The position numbers were made by a program, and so were the translations under genes. The notes beneath the pieces were generated by a model. That model had not been told where the DNA came from and did no database searches. It saw only the letters and a program-made list of their open reading frames with translations. Source: Sodalis praecaptivus (GTDB taxonomy: Bacteria; Pseudomonadota; Gammaproteobacteria; Enterobacterales; Enterobacteriaceae). From it: 64,000 bases of DNA. The stretch lies in assembly GCF_000517425.1 (NCBI RefSeq), contig NZ_CP006569.1, positions 3,090,760-3,154,759 on the forward strand, written 5' to 3'. Shown in pieces: positions 26,759 to 63,331 of this stretch (its first letter is position 1; each line of letters begins with the position of its first letter).

Positions 26759-27001
26759 TTGGCCGCTGTGGATGACGTGTCCCACGTGCTTGCTGGGCTG
26801 ATGTTGCCGCTAGGAATGACGCGTCCAACGTGCTTGCTGGGCTGATGTTGCCGCTAGGGATGACGCGTACAACGTGCTTGCTGGGCTGATGTTGCCGCTA
26901 GGGATGACGCGTTCAACGTGCTTGCTGGGCTGATGTTGCCGCTAGGGATGACGCGTTCAACGTGCTTGCTGGGCTGATGTTGCCGCTAGGGATGACGCGT
27001 C
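26759..27001. repeat. Tandem repeat, 44-bp unit, about five and a half copies
   Basis: The landmark GATGACG (first copies with small changes) occurs at 26771, 26815, 26859, 26903, 26947 and 26991, an exact 44-bp period. Each unit also contains CAACGTGCTTGCTGGGCTG and TGTTGCCGCTAGG. Copies 3 to 5 are nearly identical and the first is most diverged, suggesting recent expansion from one end. There are no unique spacers, so it is not a CRISPR array. Confidence 0.93.
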
Positions 27002-27248
27002 CTGCATAAATGGCATAGCCGGCAGCGTAGCGGCGAGTAATGCTACCGCGCGTCGCCAGCGCCGTACGCTGGGCCTACAGCGCCAATCACGCCGGCGTGG
27101 ACGGCGCCAGAGGGTGTCATTGCCTCACCGTCCTTTCCGGCGGTTATAGGCGAGAGACTGTGGTGGCAGCGGATGCGGCCGCGGCCAAGTCGATTAAGAT
27201 AATAAATCAGCGATAGCTTTGATAGGGAGCAAGATTCTAAATCGCTGC

Positions 27249-40003: not shown

Positions 40004-40199
40004 TGTTTCCTTTTGGAAGTGACGATAATCGGCACCGAACGGGCATCGCCGGTCGGCGGTTTTGCAATAATAGCCCAAAATAGCGGGTCGATAGCGAAAA
40101 TGCGCGCGTTAACCGCACGTTAGGGGCGAAATAATCCCTCCACGGCGCGGCAGCGCCGCGGTCCCTATCGCTATCAACCTGGATAGCCGGCGCCGCAAC
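40004..40199. other. osmF leader region
   Basis: About 200 bases between osmF and the repeat array. It should contain the osmF promoter, but no consensus element was clear. Confidence 0.4.
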
Positions 40200-40525
40200 G
40201 GCGAGTTGCATTGTGCTGCCGACCGCCTCGGCGGCAAGCGGGCTCAGCGTTGCCGGCACCCTACCGGCAGGAGAGCATAAAGGCGGCGAAGGCGCTGGCG
40301 CCACAGCGGCGAGAAGCATCGTTCTGCCGACCGCCTCGGCGGCAAGCGGGCTCAGTTTTGCCGGCACCCTACCGGCAGGAGAGCATAAAGTCGGCGAAGG
40401 CGCTGGCGCCACAGCGGCGAGAAGCATCGTTCTGCCCACCGCCTCGGCGGCAAGCGGGTTCAGCGTTGCCGGCACCCTACCGACAGGAGAGCATAAAGTC
40501 GGCGCAGGCGCTGGCGCATCGGATT
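40200..40525. repeat. Tandem repeat, 108-bp unit, three copies
   Basis: The landmark CTGCC(G/C)ACCGCCTCGG occurs at 40216, 40324 and 40432, a 108-bp period. Each unit holds three short inverted elements: CCGCC-TC-GGCGG, TGCCGG...CCGGCA and GGCGC-TG-GCGCC. The third copy runs into the 3' end of idi. Since 108 is a multiple of three, long open frames cross the array in several frames, but they are artefacts of the repeat. Confidence 0.92.
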
Positions 40526-41149: not shown

Positions 41150-41320
41150 GCCGCTATTTTTGCCCGCAGGCATGCATTCACCTGTAGGTACACGTTTACC
41201 CGCAGGCATGGGTCTGCCCGCGGACATGCGTTTGCCCGCAGGCACGCATTCACCTGTGGGCACGCGTTTACCCGCGGGCATCCGTTCACCTGTGGGCACG
41301 CGTTATCGCCCGGGGCAGCT
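41150..41320. repeat. Minisatellite of about 18-bp units
   Basis: Roughly nine units alternate between CCCGCAGGCATGC-like and CTGTGGGCACGCGTTTAC-like forms, each about 18 bp. One plus-strand frame reads it as six-residue blocks (LPAG-- and SPVGTR), from a TTG near 41160 to 41351, but without a ribosome site. I take it as non-coding minisatellite DNA upstream of idi, with the peptide reading as an alternative. Confidence 0.8.
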
Positions 41321-47347: not shown

Positions 47348-48310
47348 TCACTCCATAATCTGCCCGTCGTCACGGCCGGCGTTGCGCGCGGTCTGGTCAA
47401 CCTGGCGCGCTTTCTGCCGCTTATAGTCCAGCGCCGCCGGCGGCACCGGCGACGCTTTGCCGGTTTCAAGCCAGCTGCGGATGCGGTTGGCGTCGGCGAA
47501 GTGGGTAAACTTGCCGAAGGCATCAAGCACCACCAGCGCCACCGGGCGGTGATTGATGACGGTGCGCATCACCAGGCAATGCCCGGCCTGGTTGGTGAAG
47601 CCGGTTTTGGTCAACTGGATTGTCCAGTCATTGCGATAGACCAGATGGTTGGTATTACGAAACGGCAGGGTGTACGCCGGGTGACGAAAGGTGGCCATGG
47701 TTTCGTGGGTGGTACTGAGTTCGCTCAGCAGCGGATAGTTTTTGCTAGCCATTAGCAGCTTAGACAGATCGCGCGCGGTAGACACGTTGTGCATCGACAG
47801 CCCGGTCGGTTCTACATAATGCGTATGCATCATGCCCAGGGCGCGGGCCTTGGCGTTCATGGCATTGATAAAGGCGCCGTAACCGCCGGGATAGTGGTGC
47901 GCCAGGCTAGCGGCGGCGCGGTTTTCCGAGGACATCAGCGCCAGTAATAGCATGGTGCGGCGATCGATCTCGCTGCCGACCCGCACGCGGGAAAAGACGC
48001 CGCGCAGTTCCGGGGTTTGGTGGATATCCACCGATATCATCTCGTCCATCGGCTGTTTCGCGTCCAGCACCACCATGGCCGTCATCAGTTTGGACAGCGA
48101 CGCGATGGGCACCACTTTGTCAGGGTGCGCGGCGTAGAGCAGATGGTTATCCGACATATCCAGCACCAACGCGCTGCCCGACGCGATTTGCAGCGGCGAG
48201 ACCAGCGGCGCGGGCTCGGCGCTCAGCGCCGCCTGAGCGGGACCGATAACCAGATTGCCGAGGGTCAAAAGTGACACGCCAATATAAACCACACGTAAAA
48301 GTGAAAGCAT
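47348..48310 (-). CDS. pbpG: D-alanyl-D-alanine endopeptidase PbpG (PBP7)
   Basis: PbpG cleaves D-Ala-meso-DAP cross-links in peptidoglycan. The catalytic motifs are SLSK (71-74), SEN (128-130) and KTG (235-237). A signal peptide ends after AQA near residue 27. Length is 320 residues (E. coli about 310). The ATG is at 48310. In E. coli pbpG lies next to dld and bglX; here the oxidoreductase-GNAT-GST cluster takes the place of dld. It is convergent with that cluster. Confidence 0.95.
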
Positions 48311-48633: not shown

Positions 48634-50007
48634 ATGGATAGCCACAAACCCAATGATACTTCCGATACATCCCGACCCAATGATAACGATGATGTCAACC
48701 GCGCTTCTCCCCCTCCCGCCGGCACCGACAGCGGGGCGCGCCGCGCAGAGGATGACCGCCGGCATGACGATCACCGCGGCGGCGATGGCGACGCCCCTCG
48801 GCGCGACGACAACCGCAGCGATAGCGACAACCGCCGGCAGGACGACCACCGGGATAACGATGGCGACACCCGCCGGCAGGACGACGGCCGGAACAATGAT
48901 GACGACGCCCGGGGCGGTGATGACGACGGCAATAATGACGGCGGCAATGACGACGGCGGCAATCAGCGCAAACGCCCCGGCAAAAAGCCGCTGATTATCC
49001 TGGCCATCGTGGGGGTCGTGATGCTGATCGTCGGCCTGTGGTTCTGGCTTTCCAGCCGCAACCAGGAAACCACCGATGACGCCTATACCGAAGGCAACGC
49101 GGTGACCATCGCGCCGAAAATCTCCGGCTACGTGGTGAAACTGCTGGTCAAGGATAATCAGCGGGTCCGTAAGGGGGATCTCCTGGTGCAAATCGACCCG
49201 CGCGACGCCACCGCCGAGCGCGACCGCGCGCGCGCGCAGCTGGGTCTGGCGCAGGCGCAGCTTCATCAGGCGCAGGCGCAGTTGGCGCTGTCAAAGGTGC
49301 AATATCCCGCCCAATTGGCCCAGGCCAAAGCACAGCAGGCCCGCGCCGAAGCCAACTTGCAGAATGCCGAGGCGGATTACCGCCGGCAGCGCGGCGTCGA
49401 CCCCCGCGCCACCTCACAGCAAAACATCGATAACGCCAGCGCCCAGCTGCGCTCCGCCCGTGCCGAACTGGCCAACGCCCAGGCGCAGGTCGAGGTGGCC
49501 GCCCAGGTGCAGTTGCAGGTGCGTCAGGTCGAGACCAACGTAGAAGCGCGCGAACGCCAGGTCAGTCAAGCGCAGGCACAATTGGAAACCGCCGAACTGA
49601 ATCTCTCCTACAGCGATGTCCGCGCGCCGTTCGACGGTTTCGTTACCCGGCGCAATGTCCAGCTTGGTACGCTGGTTCAGGCGGGCAGCTCGCTGTTCTC
49701 GGTGGTCTCGCCGGACATCTGGATTACCGCCAATTTCAAGGAATCCCAGCTTGAACGTATGCGCCCCGGCAATCAGGTGGAGGTGACGGTGGATGCCTAT
49801 CCTAATCTGACCCTGCACGGCCATGTCGACAGTATTCAGCAAGGCTCGGGCTCGCGCTTTTCCACCTTTCCGGCCGAAAACGCCACCGGCAATTTCGTGA
49901 AGATAGTTCAGCGGGTACCGGTCAAAATCGTCATCGACAGCGGCCTGGATCCCAACACGCCGCTGCCGCTGGGGCTGTCGGCCGAGCCGAAGGTTACGCT
50001 TGAATGA
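48634..50007 (+). CDS. EmrA-like membrane fusion protein with charged N-terminal extension
   Basis: This is the periplasmic adaptor (HlyD family) of a tripartite efflux pump. From about residue 118 it has one membrane helix (PLIILAIVGVVMLIVGLWFWL), then TTDDAYTEGNAVTIAPKISGYV, a long coiled-coil rich in Ala/Gln (about 195-325) and the second barrel half ending DAYPNLTLHGHVDSIQQGSGS. Before the helix stands an unusual cytoplasmic region of about 115 residues made almost only of Asp, Arg, Asn, Gly and Gln. EmrA proteins normally have a short head there. The start ATG 48634 follows GGAG closely; internal ATG starts are lacking before the helix, so the extension seems to be translated. It overlaps the next gene by 4 nt. 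Confidence 0.88.
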   Translation: MDSHKPNDTSDTSRPNDNDDVNRASPPPAGTDSGARRAEDDRRHDDHRGGDGDAPRRDDNRSDSDNRRQDDHRDNDGDTRRQDDGRNNDDDARGGDDDGNNDGGNDDGGNQRKRPGKKPLIILAIVGVVMLIVGLWFWLSSRNQETTDDAYTEGNAVTIAPKISGYVVKLLVKDNQRVRKGDLLVQIDPRDATAERDRARAQLGLAQAQLHQAQAQLALSKVQYPAQLAQAKAQQARAEANLQNAEADYRRQRGVDPRATSQQNIDNASAQLRSARAELANAQAQVEVAAQVQLQVRQVETNVEARERQVSQAQAQLETAELNLSYSDVRAPFDGFVTRRNVQLGTLVQAGSSLFSVVSPDIWITANFKESQLERMRPGNQVEVTVDAYPNLTLHGHVDSIQQGSGSRFSTFPAENATGNFVKIVQRVPVKIVIDSGLDPNTPLPLGLSAEPKVTLE

Positions 50008-51572
50008 GCGGCGATCGCCACTGGACGCCGTCCAGCAACCCCTGGGCGGTCGCCATCGTCGTTACCCTGGCGGTGTTCATGGAAATCCTGGATACCACCA
50101 TTGTCAACGTGGCGCTCCCCCACGTAGCCGGTACCCTCTCCTCCAGTTACGACGAGTCCACCTGGGTGTTGACCTCTTACCTGGTGGCGAACGGTATCGT
50201 GCTGCCCATTTCGGCGTTTCTCAGCCGCGTGCTGGGACGCAAACAGTACTTCCTGATTTGCGTGGCCATGTTTACCGTCTGCTCTTTTTTGTGCGGTATC
50301 GCCACCGAGCTGTGGCAGATGATCTTGTTTCGCGTCATGCAGGGTTTTTTTGGCGGCGGTCTGCAGCCGGTCCAGCAGTCGGTACTGCTCGATTATTTTA
50401 AACCCGAAGATCGCGGTAAAGCGTTCGGCCTCTCCTCCATCGCGATTATCGTCGCGCCGGTAGTCGGCCCGACGCTTGGGGGCTGGATAACCGATAACTA
50501 CAGCTGGCGGTGGGTATTTTTGATTAACATCCCGGTAGGCGTGCTGACCTTTCTGGCCATATACCAGATGCTTGAAGATCCGCCGTGGGAGCGCAAAGTG
50601 AAGAACGGTAAGCTCAATATCGATTATATCGGTATCGGGCTTATCGCGCTGGGGCTGGGCTGCTTGCAGGTGATGCTGGACCGCGGTGAAGATGATGATT
50701 GGTTCTCCTCGGGCTTTATTCAGCTCTTCGCGCTACTGGCCGTGGTCGGACTGGTGGGGGCGGTGTACTGGCTGCTTTATACCCGCAAACCGGTGGTGGA
50801 TTTGCGCTGCCTGAAGGACCGCAATTTTGCCGTTTCCAGCCTGCTGATGGCGGGCATGGCGATGATTCTCTACGGCAGTTCGGTGGTCATGCCGCAGCTG
50901 GCGCAGCAGGAGCTCGGCTATACCGCCACCTGGTCCGGGCTGGTGCTTTCGCCGGGGGCGGTGTTGATCGTCATGTCCATCCCGCTGGTGCTGAAGCTGA
51001 TGCCGGTGGTGCAGACCCGCTGGCTGATAGCGTTCGGCTTTACCTTAATGACGCTGTCGTTTATTTATTCCAGCCATTTGGTCCCGAATATCGATTTCAG
51101 CACGATGGTGAAAATGCGCGCCGCGCAGTCCATCGGCCTCGGTTTCCTGTTCGTACCGCTGACCACCCTGGCTTTTATTACGCTTGCCCCGCGGCTGAAT
51201 GCCGATGGTTCAGCGCTGTTCACCATGTTCCGCAACGTGGCGGGCTCTATCGGCATCTCGCTGTCCACCGCCGCCATTACCGAGCGCTCCCAGGCCCACA
51301 GCGCCTATATGGTGCATAATATGTCGCCGTTCAACGAGCAATTCCAGCAGGCGATTCAGCGTGCCGCCCAGGCGTTCCGCGACGCCGGCAGCCTCATCGG
51401 CGATCCGACATCGCTTGCCACGGGACAACTCTACCAACAGATGGTGGCGCAGTCGCGGATCCTGGCCTACGTCGATGTCTTCAGTCTCTGCGCGCTGGTT
51501 TCGTTAATCCTTATTCCATTTTGTTTGCTGCTTTCGCCGGTGAAAAGCGAAGGCAACGCGGGAGCTCACTAA
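50004..51572 (+). CDS. EmrB-like DHA2 family drug efflux MFS transporter
   Basis: This is a drug:proton antiporter of the DHA2 family with fourteen predicted membrane segments in 522 residues. Typical motifs are AVFMEILDTTIVNVALPHVAG (motif in helix 1), ESTWVLTSYLVANGIVLP, and SSIAIIVAPVVGPTLGGWI (motif C). It pairs with the adaptor upstream (ATGA overlap) and the outer membrane factor downstream. It exports hydrophobic drugs or fatty-acid-like compounds in related systems; the substrate here is not known. The last part has a periplasmic loop around residues 430-470. Confidence 0.93.
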   Translation: MSGDRHWTPSSNPWAVAIVVTLAVFMEILDTTIVNVALPHVAGTLSSSYDESTWVLTSYLVANGIVLPISAFLSRVLGRKQYFLICVAMFTVCSFLCGIATELWQMILFRVMQGFFGGGLQPVQQSVLLDYFKPEDRGKAFGLSSIAIIVAPVVGPTLGGWITDNYSWRWVFLINIPVGVLTFLAIYQMLEDPPWERKVKNGKLNIDYIGIGLIALGLGCLQVMLDRGEDDDWFSSGFIQLFALLAVVGLVGAVYWLLYTRKPVVDLRCLKDRNFAVSSLLMAGMAMILYGSSVVMPQLAQQELGYTATWSGLVLSPGAVLIVMSIPLVLKLMPVVQTRWLIAFGFTLMTLSFIYSSHLVPNIDFSTMVKMRAAQSIGLGFLFVPLTTLAFITLAPRLNADGSALFTMFRNVAGSIGISLSTAAITERSQAHSAYMVHNMSPFNEQFQQAIQRAAQAFRDAGSLIGDPTSLATGQLYQQMVAQSRILAYVDVFSLCALVSLILIPFCLLLSPVKSEGNAGAH

Positions 51573-51573
51573 T

Positions 51574-53145
51574 ATGCCGGCTCGTATTCGCACCGTCAGG
51601 AAGCGGCCAACCCCCCTGTTACCGCTGCTCGGTTTGGCCGCACTGACGCTTAGCGCCTGTTCGGTGGGGCCCGATTACCAACCGCCCCAACCCTCTACGC
51701 CGTCGGCCTTTAATGACCTGCGCAGCACCGACCGCACCGCCTCCCGGGCGCTGGCCGCGCAGCCAGACCCAAAGTGGTGGCGCACCTTTAACGATGCGCA
51801 GCTCGATAGCCTTATCGACCGTGCCATCGCCGGCAATCTCTCTTTGCAGCAGGCGGTGTTGCGTATCGCCGGCGCCCGAGAACAAACGCTGCAAGCGGGC
51901 GCCGCCGGCCTGCCGACCGTGAGCGCCAACGCCAGCGCCACGCGCCAGCAGTTGGGCCTGAAAGGCGAACTGGACTCCTATGGCGTCCGCGCCCAGGTGG
52001 CTGAAAGCAGCGAAGAGCTCGCCTCGCGCCTGGATTCGCTCACGCGGCCGATTCACCTTTATCAAGGCAGTTTCGACACGTCTTGGGAGTTGGACTTATG
52101 GGGTCGGGTGCGCCGCTCCGTTGAAATGGCCAACGCGCAAACGCAGGCCTCGGTGGAAAGCCGCAATGATGCTCTGGTCTCGCTGGAGGCCGAAGTGGCG
52201 CGGGCCTATCTACAGTTGCGCGGCGCGCAAAGCGTCAGCGACACGCTGATGGCGCAAATCGACGTGGCGCAGCAGTCGCTGGAGCTGACCCAAAGCCGCG
52301 CGCACAGCGGTTTGGCGCCGCAGTTGGATGTGGAAAACGCCAGCGCTCAGATAGGGTCGCTGCGCGCCCAATTGCCGCAGTATCAAGCCCAACAGCGCCA
52401 GGCAATGAATGGGCTGGCGGTGCTGCTGGGGCTGCCGCCGGGGGCGCTGAACGCCGAGCTGACGCAGACCAAACCGCTGCCGCGCCTGCCGGCGGCGGTG
52501 CCGGTGGGCGTCCCCGCCTCCCTGGCGCGTCGCCGTCCCGATGTACGCGAGGCGGAAGCGCAGCTGCACGCCGCAACCGCCAATATCGGCGTCTCGGTCG
52601 CGCAGCTGTTCCCGGATCTGTCGCTGACCGGCCAATTCGGGATGCGCAACACCGATTCTGATTATCTCACCCATTGGAGCAGCCATTTTTATTCCTATGG
52701 TCCGCAGGTGTCTATTCCCATTTTCCAAGGCGGGAGGCTGGTGTCGAATGTGCGGCTGGCGCGGGCGCAACAGGCGAATGCCGTCCTCGCCTATCGCCAA
52801 ACGGTACTGACCGCGCTCCAGGATGTGGAAAACGCCTTGGTCAGTTATCGCGCCGACCAGCAGCGGGTCGACGGGTTGGAACAAACCGCCGACGCGCTGC
52901 AAAATGCCTTCAATCTGGCCAGCAACAGCTATCGCCAGGGGATAAGCACCTTTATCGAGGTGTTGGACGCGCAGCGTCAGCTGGCACAGGCGCGGCAGCA
53001 GGCCGCCAGCGCCCGCGTACAATCCAGCGTGGACCTGGTCTCGCTGTATAAAGCGCTGGGCGGCGGCTGGGAGCTCTATCCGCAGGGAGATTTGCCCAAG
53101 TTTCAGGTATTTGGCCCGGCCGAGACGGTAAACGGAAAATCTTAA
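51574..53145 (+). CDS. Outer membrane factor lipoprotein (NodT/TolC family)
   Basis: This is the outer membrane channel of the efflux pump, 523 residues with a lipobox LSAC (lipidation near Cys29). The two OEP repeats are seen as DLWGRVRRSVEMANAQ... and IFQGGRLVSNVRLARAQQ, each followed by long helices; VGVPASLARRRPDVREAEAQL is a hallmark. It starts one base after the transporter stop. Having adaptor, transporter and channel in one operon makes it self-sufficient and independent of TolC. Confidence 0.93.
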   Translation: MPARIRTVRKRPTPLLPLLGLAALTLSACSVGPDYQPPQPSTPSAFNDLRSTDRTASRALAAQPDPKWWRTFNDAQLDSLIDRAIAGNLSLQQAVLRIAGAREQTLQAGAAGLPTVSANASATRQQLGLKGELDSYGVRAQVAESSEELASRLDSLTRPIHLYQGSFDTSWELDLWGRVRRSVEMANAQTQASVESRNDALVSLEAEVARAYLQLRGAQSVSDTLMAQIDVAQQSLELTQSRAHSGLAPQLDVENASAQIGSLRAQLPQYQAQQRQAMNGLAVLLGLPPGALNAELTQTKPLPRLPAAVPVGVPASLARRRPDVREAEAQLHAATANIGVSVAQLFPDLSLTGQFGMRNTDSDYLTHWSSHFYSYGPQVSIPIFQGGRLVSNVRLARAQQANAVLAYRQTVLTALQDVENALVSYRADQQRVDGLEQTADALQNAFNLASNSYRQGISTFIEVLDAQRQLAQARQQAASARVQSSVDLVSLYKALGGGWELYPQGDLPKFQVFGPAETVNGKS

Positions 53146-53553: not shown

Positions 53554-53897
53554 CCCTAATCGTCTAAAGGATCACCGCTGGGGATAACGGATAACGCCTC
53601 CGTATCGCCCCTGCGCGGCGTAAAACGCCAGCGATACGGCGTCTGAGCCGCACGCCGCGCCGCGATAGGCCCCAACGCCAGCCCGCGAGACCCGTTTGCG
53701 CCCGCGTGCCGCGCCGCGATAGGCCCCAACGCCAGCCCGCGAGGCCCGTTTGCGCCCGCGTGCCGCACCGCGATAGGCCCCAACGCCAGCCCGCGAGACC
53801 TTTTGCGCCGGCCTGCCGCACCGCGATAGGCCCCAACGCCAGCCCGCGAGACCTTATGCGCCGGCGTCCCCGAGCGTGACCGACGTTCGCCGCGCCG
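53554..53897. other. Spacer between efflux operon and gcd
   Basis: The 344 bases hold the 54-bp tandem repeat and no supported gene. The genes on either side are convergent, so transcription terminators would be expected here, but no classical one is visible. Confidence 0.5.
53640..53865. repeat. Tandem repeat, 54-bp unit, four copies
   Basis: GATAGGCCCCAACGCCAGCC occurs at 53664, 53718, 53772 and 53825 (spacing 54, 54, 53). Units include CCGCGAGACC and GCGCCGCGATAGG-like ends. As 54 is a multiple of three, minus-strand open frames cross the array with an 18-residue repeat; they have no ribosome site or family and are treated as artefacts. Confidence 0.93.
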
Positions 53898-57331: not shown

Positions 57332-57636
57332 GCTACACCGACGGTGAAAAGATGTGCCGGCGGCAAAACGGCGTCCACACCCACGGTAAAAGGGTGTCGC
57401 CGGTGGCATAAAAGGCGTCCGCGCCGACGCTAAAAAGATGTCGCCGGCGGCAAAAAAGGCGTCCGCGCTGGCTGAAAGTCTTGCGCTGCACGGCGGCTCA
57501 CGCGGGTGCGCCGGCCTGAGGCCTTATCGGCCCGCGGCGGCGCTTCGCCGGCGTTGGCCATGGCCTGCCGCGGACAGTGGCGCTCCGCCGTGAGAAACCG
57601 CCCAGATCGAATACCCCCGCCCGCGCGCCGTGGCTA
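57332..57636. other. Spacer between gpm and the EamA gene
   Basis: These 305 bases hold a 44-bp repeat array at their left end and GC-rich sequence without a supported gene. The flanking genes are convergent. Confidence 0.5.
57338..57480. repeat. Tandem repeat, about 44-bp unit, three copies
   Basis: Units of 42, 44 and 44 bp share AAAA(G)GTGTCGCCGGCGGCA-like and GGCGTCC(G/A)C(G/A)CC parts. Copies differ at about a fifth of positions. The sequence differs from the 44-bp repeat near dps. Confidence 0.8.
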
Positions 57637-59128: not shown

Positions 59129-59498
59129 CGCCGGAGCACTGCCCTCAACGCGCACTGCCTTGCCTGCCCTCAACCCGCACCGCGCTGCCTGCCTTCAAAG
59201 CGCACCGCCTTGCTTGCCCTCAATGCGCACCGCGCTACCTGCCCTCAACCCGCACCGCGCTGCCTGCCCTCAACGCGCACCGCGCTGCCTTGCCTGCCCT
59301 CAATGCGCGCCGCGCTGCCTTGCCTGCCCTCAACCCGCCCGCGCTGCCTGCCCTCAATGCGCACCGCCTTGCCTAAAGCGAGGCCGCCGTTTGCCTCCTG
59401 CCAATCGCGTTCGCCGGTATGGCAGGCCGTAACGCACAACGGCGCCGGCGCCAAAGTCTTGCGCCGCGACACCGCCATCCAGACTGTCGGCGTTCGCC
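59129..59498. other. Spacer between the MarR gene and the ABC operon
   Basis: These 370 bases include the 25-30-bp repeat array and no supported gene. The flanking genes are convergent. Confidence 0.5.
59140..59375. repeat. Minisatellite of 25- and 30-bp units
   Basis: About nine units built on CCTGCCCTCAACGCGCACCG (followed by CGCTG) repeat in tandem, some lengthened by five bases (CCTTG). The plus-strand frames translate to CLPSTRTALPALNAHR-like repeats without a ribosome site and are treated as artefacts. Confidence 0.92.
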
Positions 59499-62617: not shown

Positions 62618-63331
62618 CGGTTTTCCTTATCGATCTTATTATCACTTGAGCGCTAACGCCCTTCCTGGGCGTGATTGATGGTGGGACGGCACGCCCCGTT
62701 CACAGCACTTCCGCCCGAAATCAGAGTGTTACACAGGATCCTCGCCGCCACTACGTACTTAAGCGCATAACATTATTCTGTCTGGTCATAAGAAAATGCT
62801 ATGGACGCTGTTTTACGCTATCTCATGGACGACCCACTAGCGTGAAAACAGAGCCGTCATGCGCGCCGCTGGCGGCGGCCGGCGAAGACGGGACTGGCCG
62901 TACGCCGTGCCGTGGCGTGCGGCGAAGAGGAATGACCGCACGCCGTCGCGGCGGCGGCCGGCGAAGGCGGGAATGGCCGTACGCCGTGCCGTGGCGTGCG
63001 GCGAAGAGGAATGACCGCACGCCGTCGCGGCGGCGGCCGGCGAAGGCGGGAATGGCCGTACGCCGTGCCGTGGCGTGCGGCGAAGAGGAATGACCGCACG
63101 CCGTCGCGGCGGCGGCCGGCGAAGGCGAGAATGATCGCGGTCCTTTCTTTACCGCCGGGGGATGAAGATGACGCTCGTCTCGACCGGCTAGCGACGGATG
63201 GCGGGATAAGAAGCAATCCCATTTCGGCACTCGGTGAGCCAAACGCCCGCCCACCCGAGGCCGCGGCCCGCGCTCCAGCGGTTAGCGGCAAAGTGCGCGC
63301 CACGTGAAACGAGCGGGTCGCCGACTGGCGC
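62618..63331. other. Spacer with a tandem repeat upstream of the ABC operon
   Basis: No gene is supported over 714 bases. The left part, 62618-62850, probably holds the promoter of the ABC operon. The 79-bp array lies at 62871-63135, and GC-rich sequence follows up to the methyltransferase gene. Confidence 0.5.
62871..63135. repeat. Tandem repeat, 79-bp unit, about three and a third copies
   Basis: GGCCGTACGCCGTGCC occurs at 62896, 62975 and 63054, a 79-bp period; GGCGGCGGCC marks the unit starts at 62871, 62950, 63029 and 63108. Each unit holds a hairpin made of GGCGTGCGG and CCGCACGCC with a 13-nt loop. Copies two and three are virtually identical. Confidence 0.93.

What the first reader, a model, noticed from the sequence alone, without database searches (positions are those of the whole stretch)
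48634..48980. EmrA-like adaptor with a 115-residue Asp/Arg-rich cytoplasmic head
Membrane fusion proteins of the EmrA type normally have 10-30 residues before their single membrane helix. Here the frame codes for about 115 residues of nearly pure Asp, Arg, Asn, Gly, His and Gln, in short repeats such as RRQDDHRDNDGD. The DNA under it is repetitive, so it may have grown by slippage. It is in frame with the helix and there is no later ATG before the helix. A disordered charged head could bind nucleic acid, metal or a partner, or phase-separate at the pump.
Basis: partly seen in the sequence, partly recalled or inferred. Interest (0 to 1): 0.72.

Follow-up and report, generated by a model that had tools for sequence, protein, structure and literature searches.

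The report
Efflux adaptor with repeat-grown disordered head
A membrane-pump adaptor protein in a Sodalis-like bacterium really does start with about 116 floppy, charged residues, but every close relative found has such a head (usually shorter), and in this lineage it appears to have changed length by copying of short DNA repeats, so it is a modest curiosity rather than a new kind of protein.

Summary
Frame 48634-50004 codes a 457-aa EmrA/HlyD-type adaptor whose first 116 residues (33 D, 19 R, 15 G, 13 N; no start codon before the helix) are predicted disordered (AlphaFold pLDDT 36-50; helix and most of the periplasmic part about 90 or more). It begins an operon: adaptor, DHA2-type MFS pump, NodT-type outer-membrane channel. 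The reading as an exceptional domain does not hold as stated. In 82 orthologues (Enterobacterales, Burkholderiales) a polar, hydrophobic-poor head is always present, 22-188 aa (median about 41), unalignable between genera but ending in a near-invariant RKRPGKKPLII. Two orthologues have longer heads. Other EmrA-type adaptors have 1-33 aa. Within Sodalis the head behaves like a coding minisatellite: a near-identical relative lacks 75, 39 and 27 nt (all in frame), each at direct repeats, and another has 188 aa made of different repeats. Best reading: a subfamily-typical, fast-evolving, weakly constrained cytoplasmic tail of a tripartite efflux adaptor, resized by repeat slippage and constrained mainly to stay soluble and inside. 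A specific binding or phase-separation role is untested and not favoured.

The parts
48634..50007 (+). HlyD/EmrA-like periplasmic adaptor gene, 457 aa
   Evidence: ORF; Pfam HlyD_D23, HlyD_3, Biotin_lipoyl_2 above cut-off; TIGR00998 EmrA/EmrK 281 bits, below its 390.8 cut-off; nearest solved chain EmrA 8zar
48634..48981 (+). 116-residue charged, predicted-disordered cytoplasmic head
   Evidence: translation; composition; pLDDT 36-50
48755..48906 (+). coding minisatellite, 39-nt unit, 4.0 copies, inside the head
   Evidence: TRF
48755..48829 (+). 75 nt absent from the near-identical relative L008; direct repeat ACCGCCGGCAkGACGAyCAC at its start and just after its end
48859..48897 (+). 39 nt (13 codons) absent from L008, repeat-flanked
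48920..48946 (+). 27 nt absent from L008, flanked by ATGACGACGGC direct repeat
48967..48990 (+). RKRPGKKP juxtamembrane basic motif, nearly invariant in 84 loci
   Evidence: column counts
48985..49059 (+). single N-terminal transmembrane helix, residues 118-142
   Evidence: AlphaFold model
50004..51572 (+). DHA2-family MFS efflux permease, EmrB-like; its ATG overlaps the adaptor's stop codon
   Evidence: TIGR00711 442.6 bits, above cut-off 230.2
51574..53145 (+). NodT-family outer-membrane efflux channel
   Evidence: TIGR01845 413.4 bits, above cut-off 210.05; Pfam OEP

Best explanation
The gene codes the periplasmic adaptor of a tripartite MFS efflux pump (adaptor, DHA2 permease, NodT channel in one operon). 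Its head is a cytoplasmic, disordered, low-complexity polyampholyte tail that the whole orthologous subfamily carries. Selection keeps it polar, free of hydrophobic residues and ending in a basic RKRPGKK stretch before the helix, which holds the N-terminus inside by the positive-inside rule; length and exact sequence are largely free. In Sodalis the DNA is a minisatellite that gains and loses in-frame units by slippage or recombination, which produced the 116-residue Asp/Arg version. Shown: the frame, the repeats, the in-frame length changes, the presence of a head in all orthologues measured, predicted disorder. Inferred: cytoplasmic location, translation of the whole head, weak functional constraint, absence of a specific ligand.
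For: 82 of 82 orthologues have a polar head, 22-188 aa; hydrophobic fraction averages 0.02 in the coding frame against 0.21 in frame +1, and frame +2 has 329 stops in total. RKRPGKKPLII nearly invariant while the rest is unalignable. AlphaFold: head pLDDT 36-50, folded part about 90 or more. Relative L008 differs by three in-frame deletions of 75, 39 and 27 nt at direct repeats; Ca. Sodalis SoCistrobi L042 has a 188-aa head of different repeats (GTPPEY, PPQHNHR) but the same N-terminal MDSHKP and C-terminal DDGGNxRKRPGKK anchors. Head pN/pS 0.30 (window/L008; Fisher p 0.02) and 0.41 (L093/L106; p 0.03): constrained, but in L093/L106 far less than the body (0.04). The label 'head of 80+ aa' needs 7 changes on the tree, so length changed repeatedly. 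Operon conserved.
Against: Translation of the head is not shown directly. Head pN/pS below 1 leaves room for a more specific role. Net charge is negative in 73 of 82 heads, which might be selected rather than incidental. The window/L008 count rests on 14 changes, and the L008 gene is itself frameshifted later in the body; in that pair the 80-codon body segment has only 6 changes, so head and body cannot be compared there. A third pair (L057/L070) gave a head ratio of 1.80 on 8 changes.
Confidence: 0.72

Rival explanations
1. The head is a functional regulatory or assembly element on the cytoplasmic side, as the N-terminal cytoplasmic part of HlyD is for its transporter; six heads cluster under one permease and tune docking, proton or substrate access, or channel recruitment.
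For: A review (PMC4446572) reports that HlyD lacking its N-terminal cytoplasmic helix fails to recruit TolC or activate HlyB; in E. coli EmrAB-TolC the adaptor is a hexamer on one EmrB and its N-terminal helix contacts EmrB near the inner leaflet; a version with residues 1-47 of free EmrA replaced was inactive (PMC13139468). A head is kept in all orthologues and is mostly acidic.
Against: The HlyD element is a helix; this head is predicted disordered, unconserved in sequence and 22-188 aa long. The EmrA replacement removed the membrane helix too, so it says nothing about the head alone.
Confidence: 0.17
2. The long head is neutral slippage junk in a symbiont-type lineage with weak selection, with no function at all beyond not harming insertion.
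For: The window is rich in tandem arrays, nine stretches by TRF; head length differs by dozens of residues between close Sodalis relatives; the L008 body and the L044 head carry frameshifts.
Against: Orthologues in Pantoea, Enterobacter and Burkholderia also keep a polar head of at least 22 aa; head pN/pS is below 1 in two of three close pairs. The genome is large (5.16 Mb) and the three genes are intact here.
Confidence: 0.08
3. The head is not translated: the true start lies near the helix and the upstream frame is open by chance.
For: No proteomic evidence was available.
Against: No ATG, GTG or TTG between codon 1 and the helix; the only later ones (codons 126, 129, 130) lie inside it. The ATG, the GGAG before it and at least 35 nt upstream are nearly identical in four Sodalis lineages; length changes in three of the four keep the frame; synonymous excess in the head.
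Confidence: 0.03

Closest known systems
EmrA of E. coli EmrAB-TolC (PDB 8zar, 8zal)
   Same: Same domain order (single helix, lipoyl, hairpin, barrel), DHA2 MFS partner in the next gene; significant sequence match over residues 114-450
   Different: Head of about 20 aa, not 116; E. coli borrows TolC while this operon codes its own NodT-type channel; the window protein scores below the EmrA/EmrK curated cut-off
HlyD-family orthologues in Pantoea, Erwinia, Mixta, Enterobacter, Kosakonia, Paraburkholderia, Caballeronia
   Same: Orthologous (about 55-82% identity), same operon, same RKRPGKKPLII motif, same kind of polar head
   Different: Head usually 22-60 aa, built of D/E/N/Q/K rather than Asp/Arg repeats
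Candidatus Sodalis sp. SoCistrobi orthologue (L042)
   Same: Sister sequence on the tree; same N- and C-terminal head anchors; repeat-grown head
   Different: 188 aa, different repeat units
HlyD of the haemolysin type I secretion system
   Same: Adaptor with a cytoplasmic stretch before the membrane helix
   Different: That stretch is described as a helix with a reported role in TolC recruitment and HlyB activation (PMC4446572); the partner is an ABC transporter

Membership tests
HlyD/EmrA-type periplasmic adaptor (membrane fusion protein) superfamily | lipoyl/barrel-sandwich and hairpin domains | tested here: met
   Pfam HlyD_D23 71.3 bits, HlyD_3 59.6, Biotin_lipoyl_2 42.5, all above cut-off; AlphaFold elements
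HlyD/EmrA-type periplasmic adaptor (membrane fusion protein) superfamily | single N-terminal membrane helix | tested here: met
   helix 118-142, pLDDT about 90
EmrA/EmrK subfamily (TIGR00998) | score above the curated cut-off 390.8 | tested here: not met
   281.3 bits; it is the best model for the window protein and matched by all 41 aligned orthologues, best E-value 4.7e-84, close to the window's own 8.5e-84
EmrA/EmrK subfamily (TIGR00998) | paired with a DHA2 EmrB-type permease | tested here: met
   TIGR00711 442.6 bits, next gene; MFS gene present in 80 of 80 loci
EmrA/EmrK subfamily (TIGR00998) | drug efflux through TolC or a like channel | not testable with these tools
   needs an efflux assay
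HlyD-type cytoplasmic element | ordered helix before the membrane helix | tested here: not met
   no secondary structure in residues 1-117 of the model

The most novel reading that the evidence does not exclude
A subfamily of MFS efflux adaptors uses a hypervariable, slippage-tuned acidic disordered skirt of six cytoplasmic tails around one permease, whose length or charge adjusts pump assembly or activity, so that repeat-number change gives quick heritable tuning of efflux.
Probability: 0.07. Interest if true: 0.65.

Novelty: new variant of a known kind. Interest (0 to 1): 0.27.

Why it matters
It shows a protein part whose composition is kept while its sequence and length drift fast by in-frame repeat change, in a widespread and little studied efflux operon. 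If length affected pump activity it would be a phase-variation-like dial on efflux; as it stands it mainly warns that a striking low-complexity head can be a subfamily-typical, loosely constrained tail.

Tried and rejected
Later start near the helix: rejected, none exists. Mobile or genome-wide repeat: head DNA and protein have no second copy in the genome. Metal binding: 4 His, no Cys, no enrichment across orthologues. Asp/Arg make-up explained by genome G+C: only partly; R/(K+R) does not follow body GC3 (rho 0.04), while Gly/Ala/Arg/Pro and Asn/Gln contents do (rho 0.46 and -0.51), and relatedness was not corrected for. Single 117-nt deletion in L008: rejected in favour of three smaller ones. 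E. coli counterpart: no DNA match in 20,395 records. Literature on disordered cytoplasmic heads of MFS adaptors: searches found none; absence in this open-access library is weak evidence. Plasmid search: only the juxtamembrane and body part matched, in Burkholderia/Caballeronia.

Full report
Observation. The frame 48634-50004 (stop to 50007) codes 457 aa from an ATG preceded by GGAG. The 116 residues before KKPLII hold 33 D, 19 R, 15 G and 13 N, with one V and one M besides 6 A as the only non-polar side chains apart from Pro, and a net charge of -13. There is no ATG, GTG or TTG between the first codon and the helix; the next ones fall within it. Tandem Repeats Finder reports a 39-nt unit, 4.0 copies, at 48755-48906, with smaller units downstream of it.

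Identity and setting. The folded part is a HlyD/EmrA-type adaptor. The best curated family is EmrA/EmrK, TIGR00998, at 281 bits against a cut-off of 390.8. It is matched by all 41 aligned orthologues, with a best E-value close to the window's own, so the group looks like a sister subfamily rather than EmrA proper. The closest solved chain is E. coli EmrA, 8zar. The next genes are a DHA2 permease (TIGR00711, above cut-off) and a NodT-type channel (TIGR01845, above cut-off). The gene set is kept: permease in 80 of 80 loci, channel in 77 of 80, the rest being loci that end too early to show it. The window's nearest sequences are from Sodalis symbionts; the organism name is inferred from these, not given.

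Comparison of heads. A start was resolved in 84; four were not (L044 frameshifted, L092 and L105 without a start codon in frame, L096 cut off). Of the 84, all have a polar head; leaving out two copies of one frameshifted Enterobacter gene (L007, L121), 82 heads are 22-188 residues, median about 41. Start choice is heuristic and some Burkholderia heads may be shorter than listed, since 26 of 84 have a further start codon inside, mostly an ATG three codons on. Two heads exceed the window's 116: L042 with 188 (185 from its second ATG) and L116 with 126, the latter with an uncertain start.

Constraint. The coding-frame translation of the heads is 2% hydrophobic on average against 21% in frame +1, while frame +2 is also polar but broken by 329 stops in total. 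The coding frame is the most hydrophilic of six in 55 of 84. The juxtamembrane RKRPGKKPLII is nearly invariant. In two close pairs head pN/pS is 0.30 and 0.41 (Fisher p 0.02 and 0.03); body values are 0.67 (window/L008, only 6 changes and one partner a broken gene, so uninformative) and 0.04 (L093/L106). A third pair, L057/L070, gave a head ratio of 1.80 on 8 changes. The head is thus under weak constraint at most on exact sequence. Seventy-three of 82 heads are net negative.

How the length changed. Against the near-identical relative L008 the window head has 141 extra nucleotides in three blocks of 75, 39 and 27 nt, all multiples of three, each flanked by direct repeats such as ACCGCCGGCAkGACGAyCAC. 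This is the signature of slippage or recombination between repeats; which of the two states is older cannot be told. L042 has an unrelated repeat set between the same two anchors. L044 carries a 1-nt frameshift inside the head, which may be decay or a sequencing error. On the tree of the folded parts, heads of 80 or more residues need 7 changes of state. The window contains further tandem arrays, those checked lying mostly between genes, so an array-forming tendency of this genome is a plausible driver.

Structure. AlphaFold with 41 orthologues gives pLDDT 36-50 for residues 1-116 and about 90 or more for the helix (118-142) and most of the periplasmic part, with no secondary structure in the head. 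Low pLDDT is expected for disorder, though also for unalignable sequence.

Mechanism. Most likely the head is a cytoplasmic disordered tail kept soluble and inside by its composition and by the basic stretch before the helix, and otherwise free to vary. In E. coli EmrAB-TolC the adaptor is a hexamer on a single EmrB (PMC13139468); if the same holds here, about 700 disordered residues would lie under one permease, an inference that makes a crowding or docking effect thinkable. HlyD needs its N-terminal cytoplasmic helix to recruit TolC and activate HlyB (PMC4446572), but that element is ordered and this one is not. I found no evidence for nucleic-acid, metal or partner binding or phase separation.

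Verdict. A real, correctly described and somewhat extreme instance of a subfamily-wide feature; interest modest.

Noticed in passing
2542-2786, 26762-27002, 40189-40517, 41159-41304, 53654-53867, 57338-57468, 59139-59374, 62871-63133: Eight further tandem arrays with units of 18-108 nt; those whose surroundings were checked lie mostly between genes. The genome stretch seems unusually rich in minisatellites.
   Followed up: partly
L008 (G025, chromosome 4.513 Mb): The adaptor gene of this near-identical Sodalis relative is broken by a frameshift in the body, while its head stays in frame.
   Followed up: partly
L044:5000-5305: Candidatus Sodalis endolongispinus orthologue has a 1-nt deletion next to a run of C within the head, which separates the start from the helix frame; decay or sequencing error.
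   Followed up: partly
L116, L108, L109: Three Burkholderia orthologues have very long upstream open frames (up to 190 codons before the helix) with uncertain start; the part next to the helix is a Gly/Asp/Asn/His-rich stretch similar in kind to the window's head.
   Followed up: no
47348-48310 (-): The divergent neighbour gene (by its sequence a serine-type D-Ala-D-Ala endopeptidase-like protein) is next to the operon in the Sodalis loci L042 and L044 only; it was not found in the 78 other loci, so the operon sits elsewhere there.
   Followed up: partly
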